Shown one piece after another: positions 46,885 to 64,000 of a stretch of 64,000 nucleotides of DNA; positions within the stretch are counted from its first letter, which is position 1; each line of letters opens with the position of its first letter. The position numbers and the translations under genes were made by a program. The notes under the pieces were generated by a model that was not told where the DNA came from, searched no databases, and saw only the letters and a list, made by a program, of their open reading frames with translations. Source of the DNA: Sediminibacterium sp. TEGAF015. Its GTDB lineage: Bacteria > Bacteroidota > Bacteroidia > Chitinophagales > Chitinophagaceae. The DNA lies in assembly GCF_025997995.1 (NCBI RefSeq), contig NZ_AP026683.1, positions 2,790,501 through 2,854,500 on the forward strand, written 5' to 3'.

Positions 46885-47982
46885 TTATTCTTTTATTTTG
46901 TAGCTGGTGCTTCGCCCTCCAGCTTCTTCCTTCACCAAAATTTTCTTTGTAACTAAATCCTGAATATCGCGTAATGCTGTATCAGTTGAACATTTGGTCA
47001 TCTTTGCCCATTTAGAAGTATTGAGCTTACCTTCAAACCCGTCTAGTATTTTGTTCAGCATTGTATATTGGCGAATATTCAAATCTATATTACTGATAGC
47101 ATCCCAAAACTGAGTTTTATAATTCACTAGTTGTAGCGTGGTTTCCACTCTATCAAAAGAATGCCCTAAACAAGTTAGAAACCATTCTAACCATTTGGTA
47201 ATATCTAATGAACCTTTCTGTGTTTGCTCTAATATATTATAGTAATTATTTCGTTCTTCACGTATCTGCGTCGACATACTGTAAAACCTTTGGGTCGTTC
47301 TATCTGCACGCGCGAGTTGCATATCAGTAATGGCTCTTGCGATACGTCCATTCCCATCTTCAAAGGGGTGAATGGTTACAAACCATAAATGCGCAATGGC
47401 AGATTTCAATACAGGATCAAGTTCGTTCTCTGTATTAAACCAATCTAGAAAAAATGCCATTTCGGTCGAGACTCTCGATGCTTCCGGTGCCTCAAAGTGT
47501 ACTTTTTCTTTACCAAAAGTGCCCGATATAACCTGCATAGGACCATTTTCGCCTGTTCGCCAAGCTCCCACTGTAATTTTAGAGAGACCACTTCTACCTG
47601 TCGGGAATAAAGCAGCATGCCAATCATAAAGACGTTCTTCTGAAAGTGTATTTTCAAAATTTTGAGTAGCATCTAACATCATATCAACAACCCCATCAAC
47701 ATATCGATCAGAAGGTACTACACCACTTACCTCCATACCAAGCTTACGAGCAATGGAAGAACGTACTTGATTGGAGTCAAGGAATTCCCCCTCTATTTCA
47801 CTTGATTTAACCACTTCCAAGGTTAAATTGTCCAAGGTAGATTCTGCCCGAAGTGAAAAACCTACTGTTTCCATTTTGCCTAGCATTTTGCCTTGTCTAT
47901 GGCGGATTTCTGCTAATAATTTAGTCAGTTTCGAGCTATCCCATTCGAATGCAGGCCAGTTTGGTTTTTCGTGAATATACAT
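46885..47982 (-). CDS. Fic/DOC family AMPylase-type protein with winged helix
   Basis: The 365-residue protein has an N-terminal DUF4172-like region, the inhibitory motif SSEIEGE (Ser60, Glu64) and the catalytic motif HPFEDGNGR (205-213), so it is a class II Fic with its inhibition helix N-terminal. The C-terminal 70 residues form a winged helix (WAKMTKCSTDTALRDIQDLV) with a likely DNA-binding role. Repeats around the start codon may be its own operator. Target proteins are unknown. Confidence 0.92.
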   Translation of the reverse strand: MYIHEKPNWPAFEWDSSKLTKLLAEIRHRQGKMLGKMETVGFSLRAESTLDNLTLEVVKSSEIEGEFLDSNQVRSSIARKLGMEVSGVVPSDRYVDGVVDMMLDATQNFENTLSEERLYDWHAALFPTGRSGLSKITVGAWRTGENGPMQVISGTFGKEKVHFEAPEASRVSTEMAFFLDWFNTENELDPVLKSAIAHLWFVTIHPFEDGNGRIARAITDMQLARADRTTQRFYSMSTQIREERNNYYNILEQTQKGSLDITKWLEWFLTCLGHSFDRVETTLQLVNYKTQFWDAISNIDLNIRQYTMLNKILDGFEGKLNTSKWAKMTKCSTDTALRDIQDLVTKKILVKEEAGGRSTSYKIKE

Positions 47983-48217: not shown

Positions 48218-49381
48218 ATGGATATACCTCGTATTGTACAAACGCAAGTGGAAGCTAAGATTGGGCAACAAAAAATTATCCTTTTGTATGGAACAAGAAG
48301 AACTGGTAAAACTACCATCATTGAGAAAATTGTTGAAAAGTACCAGAAGGGGGCGATGCTTTTGCATGGTGAGGATTTGTTTGTTTCTGAGTTATTGCAA
48401 AATCGATCAGTTACCAATTATCAACAAATAACCCAGGGTAAGAAATTACTCATTATAGATGAAGCACAATCAATTCCTGAGATTGGAAAAATATTGAAAC
48501 TATTGATAGATACTATTAAGGGTATTACTGTTATAGCTACCGGTAGTAGCAGTTTTGATTTAGTCAATAAAACAGGTGAGCCTTTGGTTGGTCGTAATCT
48601 TGAATATTATTTATATCCTATTGCTCAACAAGAACTTTCCTCAATAGAAGATTTCTTAACAACTGTAAAAAATCTAGAAGAAAGGCTTGTGTTTGGGTCT
48701 TACCCAGAGTTATGGCATTTGAATACCTTTCAAGAGAAAGAAAATTATTTAAAACAGTTAGTAAATAGTTATCTGCTAAAGGATTTGCTAATGATTGAAA
48801 ATGTAAAAGGTCCGGATATACTTTATAAGTTATTGCAATTGTTGGCTTGGCAAGTAGGAAGTATGGTTAGCACTGTTGAACTAGCCAAAAATTTGCAAAT
48901 AAATAAACTTACAGTTGAGCGTTATTTAGACCTATTGTCTAAAGTATTTATCATATACTCAGTTTCAGGTTATAGTAAGAACTTGAGAAAAGAAGTGTCC
49001 AAAAGTAAAAAATGGTATTTTTTTGATAATGGAATTCGCAATGCTTTGATTAACAATTTTAGCCCATTAAGTCAGCGAAATGATATTGGTCAATTATGGG
49101 AACAATATTTCTTGAGTGAGCGGATGAAATTCAACCGCTACAATAATTATCAACCACAATATTTTTTTTGGCGTACTTATGATGGTCAAGAAATTGATTT
49201 GTTGGAATTGAATAATGGACAATTACATGCATTCGAATGTAAGTGGAAAGAAGCTAAAGTCAAAGTTCCACTTGGTTTTCAGAAAGCTTATCCAGATGCA
49301 AAATTTACTGTAATTAACAAAGAAAACTATTTGGACTGGATCACAAAAAATGATGATTATTCAAACAGCCTGGTAAAATGA
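48218..49381 (+). CDS. AAA_14/DUF4143-type ATPase, second copy
   Basis: The 387-residue protein has Walker A GTRRTGKT (25-32), Walker B LLIIDEAQSIPE, a winged-helix middle part (ELAKNLQINKLTVERYLDLL) and a C-terminal PD-(D/E)XK-like motif GQEIDLLEL and FECKWKE. It shares layout with the ATPase at 15919 but not close sequence. Its last 25 bases overlap the 3' end of the convergent GntR gene. Biological role of the family is unresolved. Confidence 0.82.
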   Translation: MDIPRIVQTQVEAKIGQQKIILLYGTRRTGKTTIIEKIVEKYQKGAMLLHGEDLFVSELLQNRSVTNYQQITQGKKLLIIDEAQSIPEIGKILKLLIDTIKGITVIATGSSSFDLVNKTGEPLVGRNLEYYLYPIAQQELSSIEDFLTTVKNLEERLVFGSYPELWHLNTFQEKENYLKQLVNSYLLKDLLMIENVKGPDILYKLLQLLAWQVGSMVSTVELAKNLQINKLTVERYLDLLSKVFIIYSVSGYSKNLRKEVSKSKKWYFFDNGIRNALINNFSPLSQRNDIGQLWEQYFLSERMKFNRYNNYQPQYFFWRTYDGQEIDLLELNNGQLHAFECKWKEAKVKVPLGFQKAYPDAKFTVINKENYLDWITKNDDYSNSLVK

Positions 49382-50064
49382 TTTTCCAAATGCACCCGCA
49401 TACCATTGCGGAATTCTTCGGGAGAACCGTTCTCTAAAATGTCCACCAGTTCTTTGTGAGATACGAATGTCTTTAACATGGGCTGTTTTTTCAATAACCC
49501 ACTGTTGTGCACATAATCAAAAACAGGCAACAACATTTTCTGGAATTTCTTTAGGGTTTCATTACCAGTTATTTCATACAGCTTTCCGTGAAAGGCAATC
49601 TCGTGTTCAATATTAAATAGATGGTACTGTGTGGCTGGTGGCTCGTCTGATACAATCTGACGAAGGCCTGCAATATCTTCTTTGGTAATTCTATGAAACA
49701 ATAAATCGGCCATTCCAATTTCTAATACCAACCGAATTTCAAATATCTCTTTCAATGTTTCAGGAGCTAGAATATGCGGATTCATACTCTTGCTCATCAG
49801 ACCAAAAATATCGGGGCTGGTAATGACAGATCCTTTTTTCTTTTTGGATTCAATCAATCCCATAATGCGAAGTCGCGTAAGGGCTTCGCGAATGACAGTT
49901 CTGCTCACCCCTAAAGCAGCAGCAAGTTCAATTTCCTTTGGGATTACATCCCCCACAGACAGCTTTTGTTTTTGTAGTAAATCTACCAAGCTGTCTTCCA
50001 CTTTGTCCACCAGACTACTGGTGTCCATGGGTTTTATTTCATGTTTAATCGTGGCTAGGGTCAT
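49357..50064 (-). CDS. FadR/GntR-type regulator of the sialic acid locus
   Basis: The 235-residue regulator has a GntR winged helix (20-85, PKEIELAAALGVSRTVIREAL) and an FCD ligand-binding domain (about 100-230) of the FadR type. It is divergent from the SusC gene of the sialic acid cluster and is the likely repressor. A perfect dyad TTATGTCATACATAA lies 23 bases before susC, and TTATGTATAA lies just before its own gene. An ATG 12 codons in is an alternative start. It resembles NanR in role, not proven by sequence. Confidence 0.85.
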   Translation of the reverse strand: MTLATIKHEIKPMDTSSLVDKVEDSLVDLLQKQKLSVGDVIPKEIELAAALGVSRTVIREALTRLRIMGLIESKKKKGSVITSPDIFGLMSKSMNPHILAPETLKEIFEIRLVLEIGMADLLFHRITKEDIAGLRQIVSDEPPATQYHLFNIEHEIAFHGKLYEITGNETLKKFQKMLLPVFDYVHNSGLLKKQPMLKTFVSHKELVDILENGSPEEFRNGMRVHLENHFTRLFE

Positions 50065-50245: not shown

Positions 50246-53200
50246 ATGAACGCAAATCGCTTTAAACTCAGTTTGGTTGCATTGTTTACAATGCTTTCCA
50301 CTGTGTTGTTAGCCCAAACAAAAAAAATCTCCGGTACCATCCTGAGTGATGATGCCAAACCGATTGCAGGGGTTTCTGTTACCATCAAGGGTAAAAAGAC
50401 AGGAACCCAAACCAACGCTCAGGGTACCTATACCATTGAAGCAAGCCAGGGATCTACCCTTGTTTTCTCTATGGTTGGATTTGGTACCAGAGAAATTGTA
50501 GTTGGCAATAGTGCTGTTGTGGATCTTTCCCTAAGTGCTGTTGTTTCCGAATTGGAAGACGTAGTAGTAACAGGTTACGGTTCTCAGAAAAGAAAAGAGA
50601 TTACCGGTGCTGTGGTTACTGTTAATCCAAAAGCATTTGAACATTCACCAACTACTAATGTTGCAACCGTTCTTCAGGGTAATGCCCCGGGCTTACGAAT
50701 TCAACAACGTACTGGTCAACCGGGTACAACTCCTTCTATTACTTTCAGAGGAGGTACAGAATTCGGTGGAGGAGGTACACCCTTGTTTATTGTTGATGGA
50801 GTGATTGTGCCTTCTTTATATGGGTTAGACATTAATGATGTAGCAACCATTGACCTTTTAAAAGATGCGGCAACTACTGCAATATATGGAGCCAGAGCAG
50901 CCAATGGTGTTGTATTGGTAACTACTAAAAAAGGAAAAAAGGGCAAAGCGCAGGTAACCTACTCTTATCAAAACACAACCAACTATATCCGTAAAAACCC
51001 GTCTGAATATTTGAGCGCATCAGATTATATCCGCATGAATCGCCTGGGCATTCAGGCTAGATTCCGTGGAGATTCCTTAGACAACAATACCAATGCAATG
51101 AACACTGACCGTGGTCAATTATTGGGTGCCTGGGGTTGGGCAGTTAACTCTGGATGGAGAACAGATATTGGTTTGTACACCACACAATTATTAAACAATG
51201 CAAATCGTGCATTGCTGAATGATTCAAGATGGAAGCTTTTAGTTGATCCTAATCCATTTGCTCCAGGTACAATGGATAGTATCATCTTCACTGATATCAG
51301 TGCAAGAGAAAGAGAAATGATGATTTTGCAACAGAACAATACCAGCGAACACAATATCAATTTCTCTGGAGCTAACGATCAAGGCAATTACGCATTGTCA
51401 TTGGGTTCTGTAAGAGATAACGGTATGATTATCGGATCTCAGTTAAAAAGAATGAATTTAAATTTTAACGGGGGATTGAATATTGGGGAAAGATTGAAAG
51501 TTTCTACCAATATCAGTGCATACAATGTTGAGCAGGCTTTGCCATATGGAGGGTTTAACAACGTAGATCCAGAAGGGGGTGCTGCGGGTGGATTGTTACA
51601 GCGTTTTGTAGGTGTTGCTCCAACAGTTCGTTACACCAACTATGCAACTGGTGAAATTTTGCCTGGTCCAAATGATGTTACTTTAGGTAATCCAGCTTAC
51701 TGGAGCAATCTTACCGTAAACAATACCAATCAACAACGTTTCTTAGGAGGTATTAATTTAGAATACACGATTCTGCCTTATTTAAAAATATTGGCAAGTG
51801 GTTCTGGTTATTATCAATATACCGCCAATAATTTCTTTACCAAAGCTTTTCAACAAGGTAATGGGGGTGCTATGAACACCAACAGAGCTGCCAGTTTTAA
51901 TACTTCTAAAACCATGCAGTATACCACCAATGCTTTCTTGCAATTCAATAAGCGTTTTAAAGAGCACAATGTAACAGCATTGGCAGGTATGGAATTCTAC
52001 GATTACAAAAACTATGTTACATCTGGATTTGCACAAGGTGCACCAACAGATTTAATTCCTTGGTTAACTGCTGCAACGCCTCCAAACGTTCAGGGAACAA
52101 CCATTGTAAATCCTGCAGGTGCTTCTACCAATTTTGATCAGTGGGAAAGAATTGCTTCTTCTATTGCACGGGTAAACTATTCATTCATGAATCGTTACTT
52201 ATTAACTGCAGTAGTGAGAGTAGATGGATCCAGCAGATTGAAAAAAGGAAACTATTATGGAACCTTCCCAGGTGTTTCTTTAGGATGGAATATGCAAGAA
52301 GAAGCTTTCTATAAAAACTCTTTCTTGTCTAAATATATTACCAGAGTTAAGCCAAGATTAAGTTATGGTGTTAATGGTAATGTAAGTTCTTTAGGATTCT
52401 TTGCTACTTCACAGGTGTACAACAATGCAGGAACCTACAATGGATTTGGAGGTACTTATGTAGCCAACTATATCAACTCAGATGTAAGATGGGAGCGCAC
52501 CAACAGTTTAAATATTGGATTGGATGCGGGCATTTTAAATGAGCGTGTTAGTTTCAGTGTAGACTATTTTGTTAGAAATGTATTTGACAAATTAGCCGGA
52601 TTAAATATTTCTTCTCAAACCGGTTTTAGCAGTTTCACCACCAACTTAGGACAATTGCAAAATCGCGGTATTGAATTAGTAGTAAATGCTAAAATCATTG
52701 AGCCTAAAAAAGATGGAGGATTTGCGTTATCAGTTGGCGCAAACTACTATCATGTAAAAAGCTATGCAAAGAAATTACCTTTTAATGGTCTGGAAGGAAA
52801 TAGAACCAGCGGTTTCTTTGTATGGGATCCTAATAACCCCGGAAAACAAATTTATGTAGGTGGTTTAGTGGAAGGGCAAAGAATTGGTTTAGATGAAGTT
52901 TGGGCTCCAAAATGGAATGGCATTTATACAGATCCATCCACTATTGCAAGAGATGCGAATGTGTACAATTCCTTCCTTCCTTACAATAACAAGCGTATCA
53001 AACAACTGGGAGATGCACAGTGGCATCAGGTAAATCCCAATGATACCATTGATAGCAGACAATTTGTATATGTAGGTAGAACAACACCTCAACATATGGG
53101 TGGCTTCAACATAGCCAGTTCTTTCAAAGGCATTCGTTTGTATGCACAGTTTGATTATGCATTCGGCTTCGTGATTTTGAACAACCAAATTGTAAGAGGA

Positions 53201-53593
53201 TTGAGTCAGGTTCAAGGTTCTCAGAATTCAACTACCGATGTATTAAAAACATGGACACCGGACAATCCAACAGCTACCATGCCTAGATATTATTGGGCAA
53301 ACCAGGGTAGAAACTATGCAACCGATGCAAGTGGAAATAATCCAGCTGCCAATTTATGGGAGAAAGGTGATTATGTAATGTTGAGAGAATTAACCCTTGC
53401 TTATGATTTGCCTACTTCTGTAATTAGCAGATACCTGGCTAATAGAGTAAAAGGATTGAGCGTAAACGTTACAGGATCTAACTTATTCTATCTGTCTGGA
53501 TACAGTGGCAACTTCCCTGAAGTGGGCGGATTTGACCAAGGTAAATTCCCGCTACCAAGAAGATTAACCATTGGCGTAAGAGTAACCCTATAA
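50246..53593 (+). CDS. SusC/RagA-type TonB-linked outer membrane transporter (NanO-like)
   Basis: The 1115-residue transporter has a signal peptide ending at LLAQ, a CarboxypepD_reg-like domain (about 28-110) with ISGTILSDDAKPIAGVSV, the SusC motif EDVVVTGYGSQ, a plug domain with LLKDAATTAIYGARAANGV, and a long beta-barrel ending in RRLTIGVRVTL. With its SusD partner it would import sialic acid or sialoglycans across the outer membrane, judged by the catabolic genes that follow. Its stop overlaps the possible start of susD as TAATG. Confidence 0.93.
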   Translation: MNANRFKLSLVALFTMLSTVLLAQTKKISGTILSDDAKPIAGVSVTIKGKKTGTQTNAQGTYTIEASQGSTLVFSMVGFGTREIVVGNSAVVDLSLSAVVSELEDVVVTGYGSQKRKEITGAVVTVNPKAFEHSPTTNVATVLQGNAPGLRIQQRTGQPGTTPSITFRGGTEFGGGGTPLFIVDGVIVPSLYGLDINDVATIDLLKDAATTAIYGARAANGVVLVTTKKGKKGKAQVTYSYQNTTNYIRKNPSEYLSASDYIRMNRLGIQARFRGDSLDNNTNAMNTDRGQLLGAWGWAVNSGWRTDIGLYTTQLLNNANRALLNDSRWKLLVDPNPFAPGTMDSIIFTDISAREREMMILQQNNTSEHNINFSGANDQGNYALSLGSVRDNGMIIGSQLKRMNLNFNGGLNIGERLKVSTNISAYNVEQALPYGGFNNVDPEGGAAGGLLQRFVGVAPTVRYTNYATGEILPGPNDVTLGNPAYWSNLTVNNTNQQRFLGGINLEYTILPYLKILASGSGYYQYTANNFFTKAFQQGNGGAMNTNRAASFNTSKTMQYTTNAFLQFNKRFKEHNVTALAGMEFYDYKNYVTSGFAQGAPTDLIPWLTAATPPNVQGTTIVNPAGASTNFDQWERIASSIARVNYSFMNRYLLTAVVRVDGSSRLKKGNYYGTFPGVSLGWNMQEEAFYKNSFLSKYITRVKPRLSYGVNGNVSSLGFFATSQVYNNAGTYNGFGGTYVANYINSDVRWERTNSLNIGLDAGILNERVSFSVDYFVRNVFDKLAGLNISSQTGFSSFTTNLGQLQNRGIELVVNAKIIEPKKDGGFALSVGANYYHVKSYAKKLPFNGLEGNRTSGFFVWDPNNPGKQIYVGGLVEGQRIGLDEVWAPKWNGIYTDPSTIARDANVYNSFLPYNNKRIKQLGDAQWHQVNPNDTIDSRQFVYVGRTTPQHMGGFNIASSFKGIRLYAQFDYAFGFVILNNQIVRGLSQVQGSQNSTTDVLKTWTPDNPTATMPRYYWANQGRNYATDASGNNPAANLWEKGDYVMLRELTLAYDLPTSVISRYLANRVKGLSVNVTGSNLFYLSGYSGNFPEVGGFDQGKFPLPRRLTIGVRVTL

Positions 53594-53613
53594 TGGATTG
53601 TTCAGCAATTAAA

Positions 53614-55146
53614 ATGAAAGCAATGAAACACAATAAAATATTTATAACAGCTTCGCTACTCATCGTTCTGGTAGCAGCAGCTTGTACCAAAAAATTAGAC
53701 GAAGTAGTACCGCAAAGCAGTATTAGCAAAGACCAGGCACTGAAAGATCCCAATGCTGCCAGAACCCTTTATTACGGTACTTATGGATTGTTCCGCTCTT
53801 ATGCCAGTACCTTTCAGCAGTTAGGTGAAATGCGTGGTGATACTTGGGTGGATGGATTGTTCACAGAGAGTGTTGACGGTGGTTTGCAAAACTTATATCG
53901 CCACAACATCAGTAGCTTAAATGTACCTTTCAATAACTGGGGAGGTTTGTATAACCTATTGTATAATTTTAATAATGTCATTAAAATTATTCCTCAAACA
54001 CCTTTGCCCGAAGCAGAGAAAACGCGAATCTTGGCAGAAGTGCATGGTTTAAGAGCCTATGTATATTATACCATGCTCAGAACCTGGGGTGCTGTGCCAT
54101 TGAATACAGAACCAGTTGCAACCTTAACCAATACAGCAGAAACTTATAAGCCCAGAACAGGTGCGGATTCTATCATGTTACAAGTGAAAGCGGATATTGC
54201 TAAATCATTGGATCTGTTTGGCACTGCAACACCTGTATCAACTGATAAGCGTGTGGTGTGGAGTAAATTAGCTACACTGGTATTAAAAGGAGATGTTTTC
54301 ATTTGGTCTGGAACCCATATGGGTGGCGGCGCTGCAGATTTTACAACTGCTAAAGCAGCATTGTTAGAAGTTAGAAATTTACAGGGTGCTAACTTGAATT
54401 TGCAAGCCAATTACCGCGACATTTTTGATCCCACCAAAAAAGTGAACAATGCAGAAATGATTTTTGCGATCAACTATGAATTGCAGCAAGCTCAATTAAC
54501 TTTCTTTGGTAACTATTCTGTTAACTCCATTCAAGCAAATACACTGTCCTTTTCACAGGCTGCTACACCAACGGTTTCTTCTGTTTACCCATATGTAAAT
54601 GGAGCGAACAGAGTAGGTATGAATCAGGCAATGATTACCCGTTTAACTTCTGGCTTGGCAGATCAAAGAATCAGCAATTCCTTCCGTGTTATGTATTCTA
54701 ATGCAGCTCCTTTTGCTATTAGAGGAGTAATGTTGACTAAGTATTTGGGAACCGTTGCTGGAACTTCTCAAATTTACAATAACGATTATCCCATCTATCG
54801 CTATGCAGATGTGTTGTTGTTGTTAGCAGAAGCCAAAACCAAATTAGGGGAAGATCCTTCTGCAGAAATTAACGCGATTCGTTTAAGAGCTTATGGTAGT
54901 GGTTACACACCATTTGTGAGTGGAAGCCAAACTGCCAATATGAATGCCATTTTGGAAGAAGATCTTAGAGAATTCATAGGGGAAGGAAAGCGTTGGTTTA
55001 GTCTGCGCAGAGCAGGTGATGCATATACGTATGCCAATATAAATCCTGCTTATTTAAGTCCTAGCAGTACAGCTAAGTTCTTATTACCACTTTCTTTGAC
55101 GATGCTAAATGCCGATCCTTTGTTAACACAAACAGCCGGCTACTAA
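53614..55146 (+). CDS. SusD/RagB-type surface glycan-binding lipoprotein (NanU-like)
   Basis: The protein of about 510 residues has a lipoprotein signal ending VAAAC, a SusD helical fold of four TPR-like units and the closing IGEGKRWFSLRRAGDAY block typical of the family. It caps the SusC barrel and binds substrate. Starts at 53593 (overlapping susC), 53614 and 53623 are possible; the later ones give a normal short signal n-region. Sialic acid as ligand is inferred from context. Confidence 0.92.
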   Translation: MKAMKHNKIFITASLLIVLVAAACTKKLDEVVPQSSISKDQALKDPNAARTLYYGTYGLFRSYASTFQQLGEMRGDTWVDGLFTESVDGGLQNLYRHNISSLNVPFNNWGGLYNLLYNFNNVIKIIPQTPLPEAEKTRILAEVHGLRAYVYYTMLRTWGAVPLNTEPVATLTNTAETYKPRTGADSIMLQVKADIAKSLDLFGTATPVSTDKRVVWSKLATLVLKGDVFIWSGTHMGGGAADFTTAKAALLEVRNLQGANLNLQANYRDIFDPTKKVNNAEMIFAINYELQQAQLTFFGNYSVNSIQANTLSFSQAATPTVSSVYPYVNGANRVGMNQAMITRLTSGLADQRISNSFRVMYSNAAPFAIRGVMLTKYLGTVAGTSQIYNNDYPIYRYADVLLLLAEAKTKLGEDPSAEINAIRLRAYGSGYTPFVSGSQTANMNAILEEDLREFIGEGKRWFSLRRAGDAYTYANINPAYLSPSSTAKFLLPLSLTMLNADPLLTQTAGY

Positions 55147-55233: not shown

Positions 55234-56172
55234 ATGGAATTTACCCATTTGCAAGGATTAATTGCCGCTCCTTTTACCCCAATGCATGCCGATGGCAGCA
55301 TTCATCTTGAATTGATTCCCGATTATTATGCTTTACTAAAAGCCAATGGGGTTACCGGTGCTTTTATCTGCGGCTCAACTGGCGAAGGGGTTTCGCTTAC
55401 ATTACAGGAAAAGAAAGCAGTTGCAGAAGCCTGGGCAGCTTGCAGTAAAAATGACCCTGCTTTTTCAGTAATGCCTTTGTTAGGAGGAACCTGCATAGCA
55501 GATGCAAAAGAGTTGGCAAAGCATGCCCAAGAAATTGGATTAGACGCAGTATCATTTACTGCACCTTCTTATTTTAAACCTGCCAATGTGCAGATGCTGG
55601 CAGCTTGCTGTAAGGAAATTGCAGCAGTAGTTCCAGATATGCCTTTCTATTATTATCATATACCGGTGTTAACTGGCGTAGGCTTTCCTATGTACGATTT
55701 ATTACAAGCAATAGATGGATTGATTCCCAACTTTGCAGGAGTGAAATATACCCATGAAGATTTTATGGATTTTTTATCTTGTTTGCATTTTAAGAATGGG
55801 AAGTACGATATGGTTTGGGGCAGAGATGAAAATATGTTACCCGCATTGGCCATTGGAACCAAAGCTTCTATTGGAAGTACATATAATTATGCAGCCCCCT
55901 TGTATCATCAATTGATGGAGGCATTTGAAGCGGGTGATTTGTTAAAGGCACAGGCATTGCAACAACAGTCCATTGATATGATACGCTTACTCGGAAAGTA
56001 TGGTGGCATTGCAACGGGAAAAGCGTATATGAAATTGATTGGGTTAGACTGCGGTGGATTCAGGCTACCTGTGAAGAATATGGATGCAGTAGCTTTTGAA
56101 CAATTTAAGCAAGAGGTTGCTAACTTGTCTTTTGACAGTTACTGTTCAAAAAAGCCAGCTGTAGCAAGGTAG
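55234..56172 (+). CDS. nanA: N-acetylneuraminate lyase (DHDPS superfamily)
   Basis: The 312-residue TIM-barrel aldolase has the Schiff-base Lys171 (AGVKYTHED), Tyr141 (FYYYHIP) and GSTGE at 48-52. The context and the YYYHIP form favour sialic acid lyase over dihydrodipicolinate synthase. It splits N-acetylneuraminate to ManNAc and pyruvate in the cytosol. It lies in the operon after susD and before the mutarotase gene. Confidence 0.88.
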   Translation: MEFTHLQGLIAAPFTPMHADGSIHLELIPDYYALLKANGVTGAFICGSTGEGVSLTLQEKKAVAEAWAACSKNDPAFSVMPLLGGTCIADAKELAKHAQEIGLDAVSFTAPSYFKPANVQMLAACCKEIAAVVPDMPFYYYHIPVLTGVGFPMYDLLQAIDGLIPNFAGVKYTHEDFMDFLSCLHFKNGKYDMVWGRDENMLPALAIGTKASIGSTYNYAAPLYHQLMEAFEAGDLLKAQALQQQSIDMIRLLGKYGGIATGKAYMKLIGLDCGGFRLPVKNMDAVAFEQFKQEVANLSFDSYCSKKPAVAR

Positions 56173-56207: not shown

Positions 56208-57407
56208 ATGCACAATCTTGTATTTCTTTTTATTCTATCATTAATTGCGCAACCCTTGATTGCACAGACCCCTCATACACAAGCAGTAGAAACTTCCATA
56301 GCTGCAACCCTTCCTTCGATGGGTGTTGCAGGTCCTGTAACGGGCTTGCTACAAAATCATTTAATTGTAGCAGGGGGTGCAAATTTCCCTAATGGAATGC
56401 CATGGAAGGGAGGAAGTAAAATATATCATGACAAGATTTTTATTTATCAGCGGATTCACAAAGAAGAAAATCAACAACATATATCCTATCCTATAAAAGA
56501 CGGCCATTCGGAAACGCAATTTCCACTTGAATTAATTGCGCAAGACCAGCAATTGCCAGAACCGATTGCGTATGCTGCCATTTGTAATACAGAGAAGGGA
56601 CTTTTAGTGATTGGAGGAGAAAATGCAAATGGGATTAGTGATAAAACGAGGTTATTACAATGGGAGCCTGCAAATAAAAAAATAGTATACAAATCCTATC
56701 CTGCTTTACCCATTCCTCTTACCAATGCAAGTGCTGTTTGTGTAAACAACCGAATCTATCTAATGGGTGGTGAAACAGCAACAACAACCAGTGATATTAT
56801 TTATGTTCTAGATAACAATCAACTTAGTAAGGGTTGGCAAGTAGTAGGTAAAATGCCGAAACCGCTTTCTCATACGGTGCTAACAAGCATTGCACATGAA
56901 GAAAATGCTGCTTTGTATGTAATGGGGGGGAGAAAAAAACAAGCCAGTGGAATCAGTTTATTTAGTCAATCGCTGTATAGGTATAATATTAAAGAGAATA
57001 CTTGGGAACAATTGGCTGATATGCCCTACGCATTGAGTGCAGGAACAGGTGTTTGGTGGAATCAAGACCAACTCATTTTATTTGGCGGCGATAAGGGCGT
57101 TGTATTTAATCAAGTAGAAAAATATTTAGTTGCCATTGCCAACGAAACGGATTCAATAAAAAAACAAGCACTGATTCAACAAAAAAACAATTTGCAGGAA
57201 AGCCATCCAGGCTTCAGTAGAGAGATTCTAATGTACGCTGCCAATACCAATCAGTGGACAGCAATCGGTAAGCTTACACAGGATACACCGGTAACCACTT
57301 CTGCTTTTATTTGGAAATCCGCTGTCTATATCCCTAGTGGAGAAATTAAAGCAGGCGTAAGATCACCATATATATTACAAATCAATTTCCATCCCCCGCA
57401 TCCATGA
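56208..57407 (+). CDS. nanM: Kelch-repeat sialic acid mutarotase (NanM-like)
   Basis: The 399-residue protein has a signal peptide ending LIAQ and a six-blade kelch propeller (LIVAGGANFPNGMPW, LLVIGGENANG, IYLMGGE, ALYVMGGR, LILFGGDKG, AVYIPSGEI). NanM speeds conversion of alpha-sialic acid, released by sialidases, to the beta form in the periplasm. Its TGA overlaps the ATG of the transporter gene, so translation is coupled. Confidence 0.87.
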   Translation: MHNLVFLFILSLIAQPLIAQTPHTQAVETSIAATLPSMGVAGPVTGLLQNHLIVAGGANFPNGMPWKGGSKIYHDKIFIYQRIHKEENQQHISYPIKDGHSETQFPLELIAQDQQLPEPIAYAAICNTEKGLLVIGGENANGISDKTRLLQWEPANKKIVYKSYPALPIPLTNASAVCVNNRIYLMGGETATTTSDIIYVLDNNQLSKGWQVVGKMPKPLSHTVLTSIAHEENAALYVMGGRKKQASGISLFSQSLYRYNIKENTWEQLADMPYALSAGTGVWWNQDQLILFGGDKGVVFNQVEKYLVAIANETDSIKKQALIQQKNNLQESHPGFSREILMYAANTNQWTAIGKLTQDTPVTTSAFIWKSAVYIPSGEIKAGVRSPYILQINFHPPHP

Positions 57408-58675
57408 TAGCTTCTAAAAAATATCCTTGGGTGGTAGTAGCGTTACTATGGGTAGTAGCGCTACTCAATTATATGGACAGGCAGATGCTGAGTACCATGA
57501 AACCCGCTATGCAGGCCGATATTGAGGCTCTGAATAGCGCCACTCATTTCGGAAATCTCATGGCAGTTTTTTTGTGGATCTATGGATGCATGAGTCCTGT
57601 TTCTGGTATCATAGCCGATAGGGTCAATCGAAAAAAAATTATTGTCGGAAGTTTATTTGTGTGGAGTGCCATCACATTTACGATGGGATATGCTACCACC
57701 TTTGATCAATTGTATTGGTTAAGAGCAGGCATGGGTATTAGTGAAGCTTTGTATATACCAGCTGCTCTTTCCTTAATAGCCGATTACCACGATAACAAAA
57801 CGCGTTCCTTGGCTATTGGTATTCATATGACGGGTTTGTATATGGGACAAGCGTTGGGTGGATTTGGCGCAACAATTGCCGCAAGCTATTCCTGGCAATC
57901 GGCATTTACCAGTTTTGGGTTGATTGGAATCGTCTATTCTGTGGTATTGATTTTATTTTTGCGAGAGAAGCCTACAGTTGGCAGTACGGACCTAGCGGCA
58001 GCGGTTGCCTCAACAGTAACGCATCCTAGCCCATCCTCAAAAATTAAATTCTCTGCACTTGCATCTGTCTTCAAAAGTTTAACAGTCTTACTTTCCAATA
58101 TTTCTTTCTGGGTCATCTTATTTTATTTTGCCGTTCCTAGTTTGCCGGGTTGGGGTGTGAAGAATTGGTTGCCCACTTTGTTTTCACAAAACTTACATAT
58201 TGAAATGTCATTGGCTGGGCCACTATCTACCATTACGATTGCGGCTTCTTCCTTTTTGGGTGTTATACTCGGTGGTATACTTTCAGATAAATGGGTGCAA
58301 AAAAATATCCGTGGTCGTATCTATACCAGTGCTATTGGGTTATCATTAACTATTCCTGCATTATTATTAATTGGTTTTGGCGATAGTATGTTTCATATGG
58401 TAGGAGCCGTTTTCTTTTTTGGCTTTGGCTATGGAATGTTTGATGCGAACAATATGCCGATTCTCTGTCAGTTTGTAGAAGCAAAGTACAGAGCTACTGC
58501 TTATGGACTCATGAATATGACAGGCGTATTTGCCGGCGCATTCATTACAAATATGTTAGGTAAGTCAACTGATGCAGGAAGTTTAGGAAAGGATTTTGCA
58601 TTTATGTCTGTAGTAATTGTGTTTGCGTTGGCTTTACAATTGACCGTTTTGCGGCCGAAAAATTCAATCGATTAA
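57404..58675 (+). CDS. nanT: MFS transporter, probable sialic acid permease (NanT-like)
   Basis: The 423-residue protein has about 12 membrane helices and major-facilitator motifs: NYMDRQMLS in helix 1 and GIIADRVNRKK in the loop after helix 2. A central cytoplasmic loop lies at about residues 190-215. Between the mutarotase and sialidase genes it most likely carries sialic acid across the inner membrane. Substrate is inferred from context. Confidence 0.85.
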   Translation: MIASKKYPWVVVALLWVVALLNYMDRQMLSTMKPAMQADIEALNSATHFGNLMAVFLWIYGCMSPVSGIIADRVNRKKIIVGSLFVWSAITFTMGYATTFDQLYWLRAGMGISEALYIPAALSLIADYHDNKTRSLAIGIHMTGLYMGQALGGFGATIAASYSWQSAFTSFGLIGIVYSVVLILFLREKPTVGSTDLAAAVASTVTHPSPSSKIKFSALASVFKSLTVLLSNISFWVILFYFAVPSLPGWGVKNWLPTLFSQNLHIEMSLAGPLSTITIAASSFLGVILGGILSDKWVQKNIRGRIYTSAIGLSLTIPALLLIGFGDSMFHMVGAVFFFGFGYGMFDANNMPILCQFVEAKYRATAYGLMNMTGVFAGAFITNMLGKSTDAGSLGKDFAFMSVVIVFALALQLTVLRPKNSID

Positions 58676-58684
58676 ACTGGCTAT

Positions 58685-60241
58685 ATGAAAAAAATCTCCA
58701 TCATTGGAATGGCTTTAATGTTTTTGTTGCAAGTTGGTTGTTCCAAAAAATCCATTGCAGCACCGGGTGAAGTAAAAGCTATTGCTTATGCACCAGCTAT
58801 TCCCGTATTAAAAGGTTTAGAACAAAATGCGGTATTAAGAGTGGGTATTTTTATTCCAGCAGATCAAACTGCACAAGATTTTCAAAAGATTAGCATGACA
58901 CTAAATGGAGCTGCTATTTCGGATGTAGAAAAATTGCAATTCTATTTAACCGGTGCAGAGCCATTTAATACACAGCAATTATTAACCAGTTTCCAGCCCA
59001 CTACTGCTCAATTTGATGTGCCCCTTAGTTTGAAACTCAATGCGGGTGCTTATTTTGTTTGGGTAAGTGTACAGTTAAAATCAAGCGCATCCATTGATGG
59101 ACTCATAGAAGTTCGCGCAAAAAAATTATGGACTTCGAATGGTAAAGCCATTACTATTGCTGAACCTGCAGGTCCTTATGCAAAACAAAAAGGGAGTGCA
59201 GTTCGCAAAGCCAATGAGGATGGGGTACATACCTACCGTATTCCCGGTATGGTTGCAACGGATAAAGGAACTTTGTTGTCTGTGTACGATATCCGTTACA
59301 AAAACAGCGCGGATTTGCCTGGCAATATAGATGTTGGGTTGAGTAGATCCACCGACAGTGGAAAAACTTGGCAGCCCATGAAAGTGATTATGGATATGGG
59401 AGCGCCGCATGAAAACAACGGCGTGGGTGATCCCGCCATACTTTTTGATCCCATCACTAAAAAAATATGGGTAGCCGCATTGTGGAGTAAGGGCAATCGT
59501 TCCATTGCAGGATCATTACCTGGTATATCCCCCGATACCACTGGACAATTTGTTTTAGTAAGCAGTGACGACGATGGACTAACTTGGTCTACACCTTACA
59601 CGATTACCCCTCAAATTAAAAATCCCAAATGGCATTTGTTTTTCAATGGTCCAGGATCGGGTATTGCAATGAAAGATGGGAAGTTGGTTTTTGCCGCACA
59701 GTATTGGGACGACGTAAAGAAGCCTTATTCCACTATTATTTATAGCAATGATCATGGCGCTAGTTGGGTAGGAAATTTGAACGGACCTAAATCCAATACA
59801 ACTGAAAGTCAGGTGGTAGAAACTACTCCTGGTACTTTAATGCTGAATATGCGTGATAATCGGGGTTCATTCAGAAGTGTTGCCACTACTAGTAATATGG
59901 GCGCAACTTGGACAGAACATGCTACTTCTTACAATGCATTGCAAGATCCCGTTTGCATGGGTAGTATTATCAAAGCACAAGTGAAAGTGAAAGGGGTGAT
60001 GAAAGAAGTATTGTTCTTCAGCAATCCCAATACTACCAATGGTCGTTACGATATTACCATTAAAGCGAGTTTAGATTTAGGACAAACTTGGTTGCCTGCC
60101 AATCAGTTGTTGATAGATGAAAGAAACTGTTATGGATATTCTTCTTTAACACAAATAGATGCAGAAACAATTGGTATTCTCTACGAAGGAACACGGGACT
60201 TGTATTTTGTAAAAGTTCCTGTGGCGTCTATTATCAAGTAG
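58685..60241 (+). CDS. nanH: Exo-alpha-sialidase (GH33) lipoprotein
   Basis: The 518-residue protein has a lipoprotein signal (lipobox LQVGC, Cys19), an N-terminal beta-sandwich (about 25-150), and a six-blade sialidase domain. The arginine motif YRIP is at 184-187, and Asp-box repeats (STDSGKTWQ, SDDDGLTWS, SNDHGASW, SLDLGQTW) are visible. EGTRD near the end carries the acidic pair. It cleaves terminal sialic acids at the cell surface or in the periplasm. Confidence 0.93.
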   Translation: MKKISIIGMALMFLLQVGCSKKSIAAPGEVKAIAYAPAIPVLKGLEQNAVLRVGIFIPADQTAQDFQKISMTLNGAAISDVEKLQFYLTGAEPFNTQQLLTSFQPTTAQFDVPLSLKLNAGAYFVWVSVQLKSSASIDGLIEVRAKKLWTSNGKAITIAEPAGPYAKQKGSAVRKANEDGVHTYRIPGMVATDKGTLLSVYDIRYKNSADLPGNIDVGLSRSTDSGKTWQPMKVIMDMGAPHENNGVGDPAILFDPITKKIWVAALWSKGNRSIAGSLPGISPDTTGQFVLVSSDDDGLTWSTPYTITPQIKNPKWHLFFNGPGSGIAMKDGKLVFAAQYWDDVKKPYSTIIYSNDHGASWVGNLNGPKSNTTESQVVETTPGTLMLNMRDNRGSFRSVATTSNMGATWTEHATSYNALQDPVCMGSIIKAQVKVKGVMKEVLFFSNPNTTNGRYDITIKASLDLGQTWLPANQLLIDERNCYGYSSLTQIDAETIGILYEGTRDLYFVKVPVASIIK

Positions 60242-60310: not shown

Positions 60311-61492
60311 ATGTCGTATTCTATCAAAGAGCTAACAGAACTCGCTTCCTTTTATAAAAACCAATTACTGAATAGCACAATTCCTTTTTGGTTTCCCAAA
60401 TCTTTTGATGAGGAATATGGTGGATACCTTTTGATGAGGGATGCAGACGGTTCTTTAATAGACGATGATAAGGCAGTTTGGATTCAGGGGCGCGCTACCT
60501 GGATGCTCTCAACCTTATACAATACAGTAGAACAAAGGCCAGAGTGGTTGGCAGGTGCTAAGCTAGGCTATGATTTTTTAAACAACTATTGTTTTGACAG
60601 CGATGGACAAATGTTCTTTCATGTGACCCGTGATGGAAAGCCCATTCGCAAAAGAAGATATTTTTTTTCTGAAACTTTCTATGTGATTGCAGCTGCCGCT
60701 TATGCCAAAGCTTCTGGCGATGAACAAGCTGCTTTTAATGCCAGAAGGGTGTTCGACAAATGTATCCAGTATGCCACTACGCCCGGACTGTTGCCTGCAA
60801 AATTTACAGGAACCAGACCTAGCAAAGGAATTGGGGTACCCATGATCATGATGAATACAGCGCAACAGTTACGGGAAACCATTGGGCATGCTCCTTGTGA
60901 TGAATGGATCAGCCAATGGATCTATGAAATAGAAACTTATTTTGTAAAAGACGATATTCAATGCGTAATGGAACAAGTGGCACCAGACGGTTCAATTATT
61001 GATCATATTGATGGACGCACTTTGAATCCTGGCCATGCTATGGAAGGTGCCTGGTTTATTTTGCATGAAGCCAAGCATAGAAACAATGATCCGCATCTAA
61101 TTAATCTGGGATGCAGAATGTTGGACTATATGTGGGAGCGAGGCTGGGACAAAGAGCAGGGTGGCATCCTTTATTTTAGAGATGTTTATAATAAGCCTGT
61201 ACAAGAGTATTGGCAAGACATGAAATTTTGGTGGCCACATAACGAAGTGATTATTGCTACTTTACTAGCATACCAGATGACGGGCAAAGAAAAATATGCC
61301 CTCTGGCATAAGCAGGTTCAGGATTATGCGTATTCCCATTTTCTGGATATGCAGCATGGTGAGTGGTTTGGCTATCTGCATCGTGATGGAACCATTGCGC
61401 AAACAGCAAAAGGAAATTTATACAAGGGGCCTTTTCATTTACCGAGACAAGAATGGTATTGCATGCAAATACTTAAATCGTATTTGTCGTGA
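60311..61492 (+). CDS. AGE-family N-acylglucosamine 2-epimerase (NanE-like)
   Basis: The 393-residue protein has the (alpha/alpha)6-barrel pattern of renin-binding-protein-type epimerases, with the conserved RKRRYFFSETFYVIAAAAYA segment (in parts), LNPGHAMEGAWF and FWWPHNEVIIA containing the catalytic histidines. It would convert ManNAc to GlcNAc downstream of the lyase, the Bacteroidota version of the nan pathway that replaces NanE/NanK. Its TGA overlaps the GTG start of the next gene. Confidence 0.92.
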   Translation: MSYSIKELTELASFYKNQLLNSTIPFWFPKSFDEEYGGYLLMRDADGSLIDDDKAVWIQGRATWMLSTLYNTVEQRPEWLAGAKLGYDFLNNYCFDSDGQMFFHVTRDGKPIRKRRYFFSETFYVIAAAAYAKASGDEQAAFNARRVFDKCIQYATTPGLLPAKFTGTRPSKGIGVPMIMMNTAQQLRETIGHAPCDEWISQWIYEIETYFVKDDIQCVMEQVAPDGSIIDHIDGRTLNPGHAMEGAWFILHEAKHRNNDPHLINLGCRMLDYMWERGWDKEQGGILYFRDVYNKPVQEYWQDMKFWWPHNEVIIATLLAYQMTGKEKYALWHKQVQDYAYSHFLDMQHGEWFGYLHRDGTIAQTAKGNLYKGPFHLPRQEWYCMQILKSYLS

Positions 61493-64000
61493 GGAGGCTA
61501 GCGATTTTGCTGATGGCTGTTATAGTAGTTGCTTCATCGGCTGTTGCGCAGTCTTCGGCTGCGAAATCCTCTTCGGCCAACACGCAGCTGAGCCTCAACC
61601 GAATTTTCACCAATAATATGGTGTTGCAGCGAGACCAGCCCATTCATATATGGGGTAAGGGTTTACCAGGGACAAAGGTTCAGATCTACTTATTAAAAAG
61701 TGCCAGCAATAAGTCAACCAAAATAAACTCCCAACCTGCCATTGTCTCAGCAAAAACTACGATAGTAAAAGCAGACAGCAGTTGGTCAGTCTACCTGCCT
61801 GCATTACCAGCCAGTAATACTCCCCATGCACTAAAAATCACTTCGGGTAAAAATCATATTCAATTTCAAAATATTCTTATTGGCGATATCTGGGTATGTA
61901 TTGGGCAAAGCAATATGGAGTGGCCCATGCAACGCGAAATGTTTTACACGGAAGCCAAAGAAAGGGCTGAGCAACCCTTGTTACGTTTTTGTAATCCCAG
62001 TTATGCGGGTAAAAATATATTCAATCAATATTTTTCGGATAGCGTTTTGAAGATGCTAAATCCTAAGACATTTTATGCCAATACCCAATGGGAATCAAGC
62101 GATAGCAATCATTTCAAAAACATGAGTGCGGTGGCTTATTATTACGGAAAGGAAATTGTTGAAAAAACCAAGATCCCGATTGGCTTGATCAATTTGTCCA
62201 TTGCAGGTGCTCCTTTGGAAACATTTATCGGTATAAAAGCCTTACAAGCCGATGCAGCTTTTGCAGCCAAAGCTGAAGAGCCATGGCTTACAAATCCTGC
62301 GTTACCTGTTTGGGTAAAAGAAAGAGGTAATCAAAATTTAAAAACAGGAACCCATCATCCTTTTAAACCAGGACAAGCTTATGAAGCAGGTATTGAACCC
62401 TTGTTCCCATTTCCTATCAAGGGCATTATTAATTATCAGGGAGAGAGCAACGCGCAGGAAATTGAAAGGGTACAAGAGTATGCAGCCCTATCGAAACTGA
62501 TGGTCAACGATTATCGAAAGAAATGGAATCAACCAAAGCTACCTTATTATTATGTTCAATTGTCTTCTATTGATACGGCCAAATACAAGGGGCATTTTTG
62601 GGGTTCATTTAGAGAGGAACAAAGAAAGATTTTATCGCTCATTCCTTTTTCGGGAATGGCAGTTTGTAGCGATATTGGTTTCAAAGACAATGTACATCCT
62701 ACCAATAAAAAATGGGTGGGAGAACGATTGGCCAGATGGGCTTTGCATAAAACCTATGGTCAAGATATTTTACCATCGGGGCCACTGCCTACAAAAGCGG
62801 TGTATGAAAATGGGGAAGTGATTGTATATTTCCAGTATACGGGAAAGGGATTACAAGCGGCTCTACCTGACGATTTTAAATGCAACGCAAACGCTGAAGC
62901 GCAATCGCTTCGCGGATTTTCTTTGGATGGTATTCATCCCATAGCTGCCACTATTCAGCAGCAAAGGATTCATATTCCAGTTTCATCCAAGCCTGACTAC
63001 ATTTATTATGGATGGAAATCGTATAGCGATGGTAATTTGGCAAACAGTGAACTACTTCCTGCTTCCACATTTAAAATAAGCGTAGAAAATGCACAAGTGG
63101 TTTTGCCCACTTATCCCGATTCTATTTTCAATACTTATTATCATCAGCGCGCAAGTTTGTTTAGATCTTTGCCGATTACATCGGTTAGCAAGTTTAATAC
63201 AACAGAGTCGCAACCTGCTTCTCAGCGCGACATTATTTTCTTAGGCAATAGCATCAACGACGGCTCAGAGTGGTCAGAATTGTTCAATGATATTAGAATA
63301 AAAAACAGAGGTATCAGTGGTGACATAACAGCGGGGATTATTCATCGGTTGAAAGAAATTACGGATAGAAAACCTGCCAAAGTATTTTTAATGATTGGCA
63401 TTAACGATTTGGGTAGAAGTGTATCGCCTGATTCTGTGGTCAAAAATATTTTGCTGATCCATGATTATCTAAAGCAAGAAAGCCCTGCCACCAAAGTATA
63501 TATTGAAAGTATACTTCCTGTAAATCCCAGCTTCGGAAAATTTGCAGGGCAAGTAAGTAAAGTAAAAGAAATACTCCAAGTCAATGCTATGCTAAAAGCT
63601 TCTGCTGCAATGCATTGTTTTGCATTTATCGATTTGCATAGTTCATTCGTAAATGCACAAGGGTATTTAGATCCAAAGTATACCAATGATGGGTTGCATT
63701 TGGTGGGTGCGGGATATCAGTTGTGGCGACATTTAATTTATCCGAAAGTATTTGACTTAACAGAGAAGCCTGCTTTGATTCCTATGCCTACAAAAGTAGA
63801 ATGGAAGCAAGGTTATTATTCTTTGATAGCTGGCAAAACTTTGGCCGAACAAGTACAGATAGAATGGAACGACACAAAGAGGGAGAACAAAAATGAAGCT
63901 TACTCATTAAAAGTAACTCCCGAAAAAATCCTCATTAAAGCGGCAACACAACACGGCGTCTTCAATGCCCTACAAACCTTACAGCAATTGGCACGTAATG
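61489..64000 (+). CDS. Fused sialate O-acetylesterase / SGNH hydrolase / GH20 hexosaminidase (partial)
   Basis: An open frame from a GTG overlapping the epimerase stop runs past the window end (837 codons seen). After a signal peptide ending AVAQ come three units. Residues 30-500 form a sialate O-acetylesterase with Ser141 (IGQSNMEWP) and Asp400/His403 (DNVHP). Residues 575-755 form an SGNH hydrolase with Ser588 (FLGNSINDG), GINDLG and Asp734/His737 (NDGLHLV). From about 760 a GH20 N-terminal domain begins, with YSLKVTPEKILIKAATQHG (in parts). It would remove O-acetyl groups that block sialidase and trim hexosamines. The catalytic GH20 domain is outside the window. Confidence 0.88.
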   Translation, partial: MRRLAILLMAVIVVASSAVAQSSAAKSSSANTQLSLNRIFTNNMVLQRDQPIHIWGKGLPGTKVQIYLLKSASNKSTKINSQPAIVSAKTTIVKADSSWSVYLPALPASNTPHALKITSGKNHIQFQNILIGDIWVCIGQSNMEWPMQREMFYTEAKERAEQPLLRFCNPSYAGKNIFNQYFSDSVLKMLNPKTFYANTQWESSDSNHFKNMSAVAYYYGKEIVEKTKIPIGLINLSIAGAPLETFIGIKALQADAAFAAKAEEPWLTNPALPVWVKERGNQNLKTGTHHPFKPGQAYEAGIEPLFPFPIKGIINYQGESNAQEIERVQEYAALSKLMVNDYRKKWNQPKLPYYYVQLSSIDTAKYKGHFWGSFREEQRKILSLIPFSGMAVCSDIGFKDNVHPTNKKWVGERLARWALHKTYGQDILPSGPLPTKAVYENGEVIVYFQYTGKGLQAALPDDFKCNANAEAQSLRGFSLDGIHPIAATIQQQRIHIPVSSKPDYIYYGWKSYSDGNLANSELLPASTFKISVENAQVVLPTYPDSIFNTYYHQRASLFRSLPITSVSKFNTTESQPASQRDIIFLGNSINDGSEWSELFNDIRIKNRGISGDITAGIIHRLKEITDRKPAKVFLMIGINDLGRSVSPDSVVKNILLIHDYLKQESPATKVYIESILPVNPSFGKFAGQVSKVKEILQVNAMLKASAAMHCFAFIDLHSSFVNAQGYLDPKYTNDGLHLVGAGYQLWRHLIYPKVFDLTEKPALIPMPTKVEWKQGYYSLIAGKTLAEQVQIEWNDTKRENKNEAYSLKVTPEKILIKAATQHGVFNALQTLQQLARN

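What the first reader, a model, noticed from the sequence alone, without database searches (positions are those of the whole stretch)
61489..64000. Triple-enzyme fusion: sialate esterase, SGNH hydrolase and GH20 domain
Seen: one open frame of at least 837 codons contains two complete esterase triads of different folds and the N-terminal domain of a hexosaminidase. Inference: one chain may strip O-acetyl groups at different positions and then trim exposed GalNAc/GlcNAc, an economical mucin-processing enzyme. The two esterases may have different acetyl positions as targets.
Basis: partly seen in the sequence, partly recalled or inferred. Interest (0 to 1): 0.65.

Follow-up and report, generated by a model that had tools for sequence, protein, structure and literature searches.

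The report
Fused two-esterase hexosaminidase, sialic-acid operon
A freshwater-type Bacteroidota bacterium makes one long protein that joins two acetyl-removing enzymes to a complete sugar-trimming enzyme inside its sialic-acid-eating operon; the enzymes are known kinds, but this three-in-one form is rare and I found no description of it.

Summary
It runs past the window edge to 1336 codons, without a stop, in a single-contig genome of the Sediminibacterium group. It encodes a signal peptide, a CE20/SIAE-type sialate esterase (SASA), an SGNH 9-O-acetylesterase about 50% identical to the solved Phocaeicola vulgatus enzyme, and a complete GH20 β-N-acetylhexosaminidase with D990-E991. All catalytic residues are invariant in 40-44 relatives, except the acid next to the SASA histidine. 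The gene lies in a full sialic-acid operon: NanR-like regulator, SusC/NanU, NanA, NanM, MFS transporter, sialidase, epimerase, GH2.

The SASA triad's third member is uncertain. Mucin is not shown.

Across relatives, SGNH-GH20 is a common fusion. SASA is normally a separate adjacent gene. The three-enzyme chain was found in only three genomes, made by losing SASA's stop codon and the internal signal peptide. Other orders (GH20-SGNH, SASA-GH20, GH20-SASA-NanM, SGNH-SASA-NanM) occur, so this operon fuses repeatedly. New variant of a known kind; moderate interest.

The parts
61489..64000 (+). Whole fused gene as far as the window reaches (it continues to window-equivalent 65499; 1336 aa). GTG start overlaps the stop of the epimerase gene as GTGA
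61489..61551 (+). Signal peptide, aa 1-21 (MRRLAILLMAVIVVASSAVAQ); no lipobox cysteine. Inferred by eye, no predictor was run
   Evidence: sequence
61579..63078 (+). SASA / CE20-SIAE-type esterase domain, aa 31-530; S141 (61909-61911), D395, H403 (62695-62697)
   Evidence: Pfam SASA; PDB sequence matches; model aligned to 7kmm Z 40.6 and dog SIAE 8f9o Z 35.2; residues invariant 40/40
63079..63129 (+). Fusion linker, aa 531-547 (...ENAQVVLPTYPDSIF); 'AQ|V.LP.YPDS' matches the signal-peptide cleavage region of the unfused downstream gene in relatives
63130..63759 (+). SGNH 9-O-acetylesterase-type domain, aa 548-757; S588 (63250), G608, N639, D734 (63688), H737 (63697)
   Evidence: Pfam GDSL_2; 6njc/7pzg E 1e-58; model to 7pzg Z 28.5-30.9, 50% identity; invariant 44/44
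63766..64000 (+). Start of the GH20 module (GH20b domain aa 794-849); the catalytic barrel (from aa 852, D990-E991) and a C-terminal beta-rich part (about aa 1175-1336) lie beyond the window in L002
60311..61492 (+). N-acylglucosamine 2-epimerase (AGE/NanE type), overlaps the fused gene by 4 bases
58685..60241 (+). BNR sialidase, predicted lipoprotein by eye (LQVGCSKKS)
57404..58675 (+). MFS transporter
56208..57407 (+). NanM-type N-acetylneuraminate mutarotase (cyclically permuted kelch family)
55234..56172 (+). N-acetylneuraminate lyase family (NanA)
53593..55146 (+). NanU-like SusD lipoprotein
   Evidence: NCBIfam NanU 1.9e-85, below its curated cut-off
50246..53593 (+). SusC-type TonB-dependent receptor (NanO position)
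49357..50064 (-). GntR/FCD regulator, best NCBIfam match NanR (below cut-off), divergent from the operon

Best explanation
The gene encodes an exported three-activity enzyme of the cell's sialoglycan operon. Shown by sequence and fold: a CE20/SIAE-type acetylesterase, an EstA/P. vulgatus-type sialate 9-O-acetylesterase and a GH20 beta-N-acetylhexosaminidase, each with its core catalytic residues, in one chain behind one signal peptide, encoded next to the operon's sialidase. Inferred: the two esterases strip O-acetyl groups from sialic acid, with different positional preferences, so that the separate sialidase can work. The GH20 removes beta-linked GalNAc/GlcNAc, either a branch beside the sialic acid or the residue uncovered after the sialidase and GH2 have acted. 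NanOU, NanM, the MFS transporter, NanA and the epimerase then import and break down the freed sialic acid. The chain arose by gene fusion: neighbouring genes, often overlapping as ATGA, lost the upstream stop codon and the downstream signal peptide.
For: Full frame and domains. Close solved relatives: SGNH to the P. vulgatus sialic acid esterase at 50% identity, 1.3-1.5 A over 198 residues; SASA to CE20 7kmm Z 40.6 and mammalian SIAE Z 34-35; GH20 to human HexB and bacterial hexosaminidases Z about 28. Catalytic residues invariant in 40 SASA and 44 SGNH-GH20 relatives. Confident models: pLDDT 88.6, pTM 0.91 and pLDDT 91.4, pTM 0.80. Operon content. Of 41 loci with SGNH and GH20, 30 have the epimerase, 29 a sialidase, 23 NanM and 20 NanA within the flanks held. 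In B. fragilis separate sialidase, hexosaminidase (nahA) and putative sialate esterase (estS) genes are all induced by sialic acid (PMC3969230). EstA frees 9-O-acetylated mucin sialic acid for sialidase (PMC5512079). Junctions.
Against: No activity has been measured for this protein or any fused relative. The regiospecificity of each esterase and the GlcNAc/GalNAc preference of the GH20 cannot be read from sequence. CE20 also holds xylan and xyloglucan esterases. The SASA domain lacks a certain third triad residue. The chain could be cut after export.
Confidence: 0.75

Rival explanations
1. The chain is made for a non-mucin, non-animal glycan: O-acetylated bacterial or algal polysaccharide or biofilm nonulosonic acids. 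The esterases would remove acetyl groups from HexNAc or nonulosonic acid residues of such a polymer, followed by GH20 trimming.
For: Carriers are largely free-living or sludge, freshwater and soil Chitinophagaceae (organism names and record titles). Nonulosonic acids occur in sludge extracellular polymers (PMC8053191, abstract only). CE20 members act on several polysaccharides (PMC12313940).
Against: The full Neu5Ac-type catabolic set (NanA, NanM, NanU-like, epimerase, sialidase) points to sialic acid. The SGNH domain is 50% identical to a sialate esterase.
Confidence: 0.25
2. The fusion has no catalytic meaning: a neutral loss of a stop codon and signal peptide between translationally coupled genes, kept because the parts still fold and work independently. 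(This concerns why the parts are joined and is compatible with the best explanation of what they do.)
For: Only three of the carrier genomes have the three-enzyme form; split neighbours are commoner. SASA and SGNH-GH20 genes often overlap as ATGA, so few changes are needed.
Against: In the SGNH-GH20 tree the fused forms sit at three separate places and are rejected as one clade (AU p 3e-9). Fusions of the same activities in other orders recur: GH20-SGNH, SASA-GH20, GH20-SASA-NanM, SGNH-SASA-NanM. Recurrence alone does not prove advantage.
Confidence: 0.4
3. The first domain is a general CE20 polysaccharide acetylesterase (xylan-type), unrelated to sialic acid.
For: Best sequence and structural matches include CE20 enzymes 9h4u, 9ega, 7kmm, placed in xylan/xyloglucan work (PMC12313940).
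Against: Like mammalian SIAE it lacks the ancillary domain those enzymes carry (about 25 residues where Fl8CE20_II has about 180). It aligns to SIAE over 435 residues. It sits in the sialic acid operon in most loci.
Confidence: 0.1
4. Artefact: assembly join or chance run-on of separate genes.
For: None found.
Against: Single-contig genome; the same architecture in two other species; no stop; conserved active sites.
Confidence: 0.01

Closest known systems
Tannerella forsythia NanS (two-module sialyl-O-acetylesterase, O7 and O9)
   Same: Two esterase modules in one chain in a sialic acid operon, with reported different regiospecificity (title of doi 10.1093/glycob/cwab034).
   Different: No hexosaminidase module is reported in that title. 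Pedobacter proteins with an SGNH-then-SASA order (691-699 aa) probably resemble it; here the order is SASA-SGNH and the SGNH belongs to the EstA/P. vulgatus type. NanS itself was not compared here.
Phocaeicola vulgatus sialic acid 9-O-acetylesterase (6njc, 7pzg) and B. fragilis EstA
   Same: The middle domain is about 50% identical to the former, 1.3-1.5 A, with the same S/G/N/DxxH residues.
   Different: The solved enzyme is a stand-alone protein of about 220 aa; here it lies between two other enzymes. EstA's sequence was not compared here.
CE20 / mammalian SIAE (SASA, PF03629)
   Same: Same fold, GQSNM serine and HP histidine.
   Different: No ancillary domain, unlike the bacterial CE20 structures; the residue two before His is Asn in the window; fused to other enzymes.
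GH20 beta-N-acetylhexosaminidases (4pys, HexB, 8pxu)
   Same: GH20b domain plus barrel, D-E pair, conserved Arg/His/Trp/Tyr.
   Different: Preceded by an SGNH esterase; followed by a C-terminal beta-rich region of about 160 aa without a Pfam match.
Bifidobacterium bifidum SiaBb3 (GH33 sialidase + GH123 beta-GalNAcase)
   Same: One chain with two activities on the same sialylated cap, the Sda antigen (PMC12856340).
   Different: SiaBb3 carries the sialidase itself and no esterase; here the sialidase is a separate protein.

Membership tests
SASA / CE20-SIAE esterases | SASA domain above curated cut-off with GQSN serine and HP histidine | tested here: met
Bacterial CE20 with water-mediated triad | Ancillary domain inserted in the SGNH domain, with Asp/Asn two residues before His | tested here: not met
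   N401 is at the anchor position, but the ancillary insert is absent. The arrangement resembles ancillary-free SIAE, so it is filed as SIAE-like CE20, not as this subgroup
SASA / CE20-SIAE esterases | De-O-acetylation of sialic acid | not testable with these tools
   needs assay
EstA/P. vulgatus-type SGNH sialate 9-O-acetylesterase | SGNH blocks I, II, III, V (S, G, N, D-H) | tested here: met
   S588 G608 N639 D734 H737, 44/44
EstA/P. vulgatus-type SGNH sialate 9-O-acetylesterase | Close similarity to a solved member over the whole domain | tested here: met
   E 1e-58, 50% identity, 198 residues at 1.3-1.5 A
GH20 beta-N-acetylhexosaminidase | GH20b plus catalytic domain with D-E pair | tested here: met
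GH20 beta-N-acetylhexosaminidase | Release of beta-GlcNAc/GalNAc | not testable with these tools
   needs assay
T. forsythia NanS-type double esterase | Two esterase modules in one chain | tested here: met
T. forsythia NanS-type double esterase | Orthology with NanS over both modules | not tested
Bacteroidota nan operon (NanOU/NanLET type) | SusC/NanU, NanA, epimerase, transporter, sialidase, regulator together | tested here: met
   the NanU, NanR and NanA models score below their curated NCBIfam cut-offs

The most novel reading that the evidence does not exclude
A dedicated 'unblocking' enzyme: one chain that removes every group that shields sialic acid from the operon's own sialidase, namely acetyl groups at different positions (two esterases) and the neighbouring beta-1,4-GalNAc of Sda/GM2-like caps (GH20), and that is repeatedly reinvented by fusion in environmental Bacteroidota. 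GH20 enzymes able to remove GalNAc beside a sialic acid exist (Amuc_1924, PMC11790493). SiaBb3 works in the opposite order, sialic acid first (PMC12856340).
Probability: 0.15. Interest if true: 0.6.

Novelty: new variant of a known kind. Interest (0 to 1): 0.37.

Why it matters
O-acetyl groups protect sialic acids from most sialidases. A natural single chain holding two esterases and a hexosaminidase is a ready test of whether joining these steps speeds sialoglycan breakdown, and a possible tool enzyme. The many fusion orders in one operon family give a natural set for studying why enzymes fuse. The carriers are mostly environmental, which raises the question of where they meet O-acetylated sialic acids.

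Tried and rejected
Assembly or edge artefact: rejected. Longer triple frames suggested by the open_frame column (G315, G227, G345, G131): rejected as fusions, because reading the DNA shows a stop between SASA and SGNH-GH20. The in-frame single-stop junctions (G315, G345, G227) are about what chance gives, so no stop read-through is claimed. One shared origin of all three-enzyme chains: rejected for the SGNH-GH20 part, but the window and L033 linkers have equal length and the L033 SASA 3' half looks recombined, so a shared junction passed by recombination stays open. Literature searches for a described esterase-GH20 fusion found none in the held library; most subscription papers are not in it. 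The full 1336-aa chain exceeds the fold limit, so two overlapping halves were modelled; the C-terminal beta-rich region was not folded alone and its family is unassigned. The paper on NanS's two modules could not be read.
Full report
Observation. The frame at 61489-63999 is open as described. The window lies at G000:C1:2790501-2854500 in a one-contig genome of 3,055,665 bases. Reading on (L002), the frame ends at L002:6499, window-equivalent 65499, giving 1336 residues without a stop. Pfam: SASA 309-417 (best stretch), Lipase_GDSL_2 596-745, Glyco_hydro_20b 794-849, Glyco_hydro_20 from 852 (E 1.9e-43). Genus: G036 is Sediminibacterium salmoneum NBRC 103935 by identical coordinates and is listed as the same genus as the window's genome.

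Domains. The SGNH domain matches 6njc/7pzg at E 1e-58. Models superpose on 7pzg with Z 28.5-30.9, 1.3-1.5 A over 198 residues, 50% identity. The SASA domain matches CE20 enzymes 9h4u, 7kmm, 9ega and mammalian SIAE, with Z 40.6 to 7kmm and 34-35 to SIAE. It lacks the roughly 180-residue ancillary insert of bacterial CE20 structures, having about 25 residues there. The GH20 part superposes on human HexB and bacterial hexosaminidases, Z about 28. Models are confident: SGNH-GH20 pLDDT 88.6, pTM 0.91; SASA-SGNH pLDDT 91.4, pTM 0.80.

Active sites. In 40 SASA relatives S141, E319, D395 and H403 never vary; the positions two and three before His alternate mostly between Asp and Asn, and the window has D400, N401. 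The CE20 paper reports Asp or Asn two before His coordinating a water, and a Ser-His dyad for ancillary-free SIAE (PMC12313940), so SASA's third residue here is open. In 44 SGNH-GH20 relatives S588, G608, N639, D734, H737 and R855, H948, D990, E991, W1017, W1032, Y1054, W1090 never vary. Both esterases are SGNH hydrolases, so 'different folds' is wrong.

Operon. Divergent NanR-like GntR regulator (49357-50064, minus), then SusC, NanU-like SusD, NanA, NanM, MFS, sialidase, epimerase, the fused gene, and GH2 downstream. The fused gene's GTG overlaps the epimerase stop as GTGA. Among 41 loci with both SGNH and GH20 and enough flank, 30 have the epimerase, 29 a sialidase, 25 the transporter, 23 NanM and 20 NanA; the flanks held are limited, so these are lower bounds.

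Distribution. A scan of genome contigs and searches of 60 relatives, 396 genomes of the order and 395 of the class, with domain checks on each frame, show the following. SGNH-GH20 of about 860 aa is widespread in Chitinophagaceae. SASA is normally a separate gene, often next to it. The three-enzyme chain was found in the window, in 'Sphingobacteriia bacterium 28-36-52' (L033 = G011) and in Flavihumibacter stibioxidans (L034). SASA is fused to another GH20 in S. salmoneum and strain C3 (L038, L064). GH20-SGNH occurs in reverse order in G104 (L143). GH20-SASA-NanM (1543 aa, L163) and SGNH-SASA-NanM (1049 aa, L164) also occur.

How the fusion formed. In split relatives SASA ends LPASTFKI.V. followed by a stop, often in an ATGA-type overlap with the next gene (inferred from frame offsets), which starts with a signal peptide ending ..AQ and then .LP.YPDSxFSTYYHQR. 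The window reads LPASTFKISVENAQVVLPTYPDSIFNTYYHQR: the stop and signal peptide are gone and the chain resumes at the old cleavage region. L033 has a linker of the same length, L034 a shorter one. L033 and the split relative L065 are 94-96% identical in DNA on both sides, yet L033 lacks the 2.4-kb second GH20 gene, and its SASA 3' half is divergent from all relatives, which looks like a recombination tract. In the SGNH-GH20 tree the window groups with S. salmoneum/C3 and L033 with L065, all split; holding the fused pair together is rejected (AU p 3e-9), and all three together more strongly (larger tree). The SASA tree does not resolve the window's place. So either the join happened at least twice in the genus or a fused junction moved by recombination; the Flavihumibacter join is probably separate.

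Mechanism. Shown: three catalytic modules in one exported chain in a sialic acid operon. From the literature: 9-O-acetyl esters block sialidase and EstA relieves this (PMC5512079); separate sialidase, hexosaminidase and putative esterase genes are induced by sialic acid in B. fragilis (PMC3969230); one chain with two esterase modules of different regiospecificity is known (T. forsythia NanS; title only, seen). Inferred: the esterases prepare sialic acid for the separate sialidase, and GH20 removes beta-HexNAc. The GH20 cannot act directly after the esterases on ordinary Sia-Gal-GlcNAc caps, since sialidase and a beta-galactosidase must come first; it could act directly on branched Sda/GM2-like caps, as Amuc_1924 does (PMC11790493), whereas SiaBb3 removes sialic acid first (PMC12856340). 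Mucin is only one possible substrate; carriers are mostly environmental.

Verdict. Observation confirmed and extended; interpretation partly supported. Known enzyme families in a rare combination that I did not find described in the held library. New variant of a known kind.

Noticed in passing
L163:6144-10772: GH20-SASA-NanM fusion of 1543 aa (hexosaminidase, sialate esterase, mutarotase) directly after a sialidase gene in another Bacteroidota family (G534).
   Followed up: partly
L164:183-3329: SGNH-SASA-NanM fusion of 1049 aa (G461), a NanS-like double esterase joined to a mutarotase.
   Followed up: partly
L143:4720-7818: GH20-SGNH fusion in reverse order, 1033 aa (G104).
   Followed up: partly
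L038:6063-10013 and L064:5958-10013: SASA fused to a second, different GH20 (with CHB_HEX_C and F5/8 C domains), next to SGNH-GH20, in Sediminibacterium salmoneum and strain C3.
   Followed up: yes
L033:9000-9600 against L065: Near-identical loci differ by a 2.4-kb GH20 gene and a divergent SASA 3' half, suggesting a recombination tract carrying the fused junction.
   Followed up: partly
window 61489-61515: An AGGAGG directly follows the GTG start; a TTG (61505) or ATG (61511) start is possible but would spoil the signal peptide.
   Followed up: no
L145:192-2167; L074:9452-11885; L139:4970-6522: GH2, GH20 and SASA genes each split over two overlapping frames in relatives (frameshifts or sequencing errors).
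   Followed up: no
window 30680-32365 and 30751-30838: A serine recombinase gene on the minus strand overlaps a tRNA-Ser gene, possibly an integrated element.
   Followed up: no
window 46885-47982; L002:9128-11740: A Fic gene lies upstream of the sialic acid operon, and HipA-like and Fic genes lie downstream of it.
   Followed up: no
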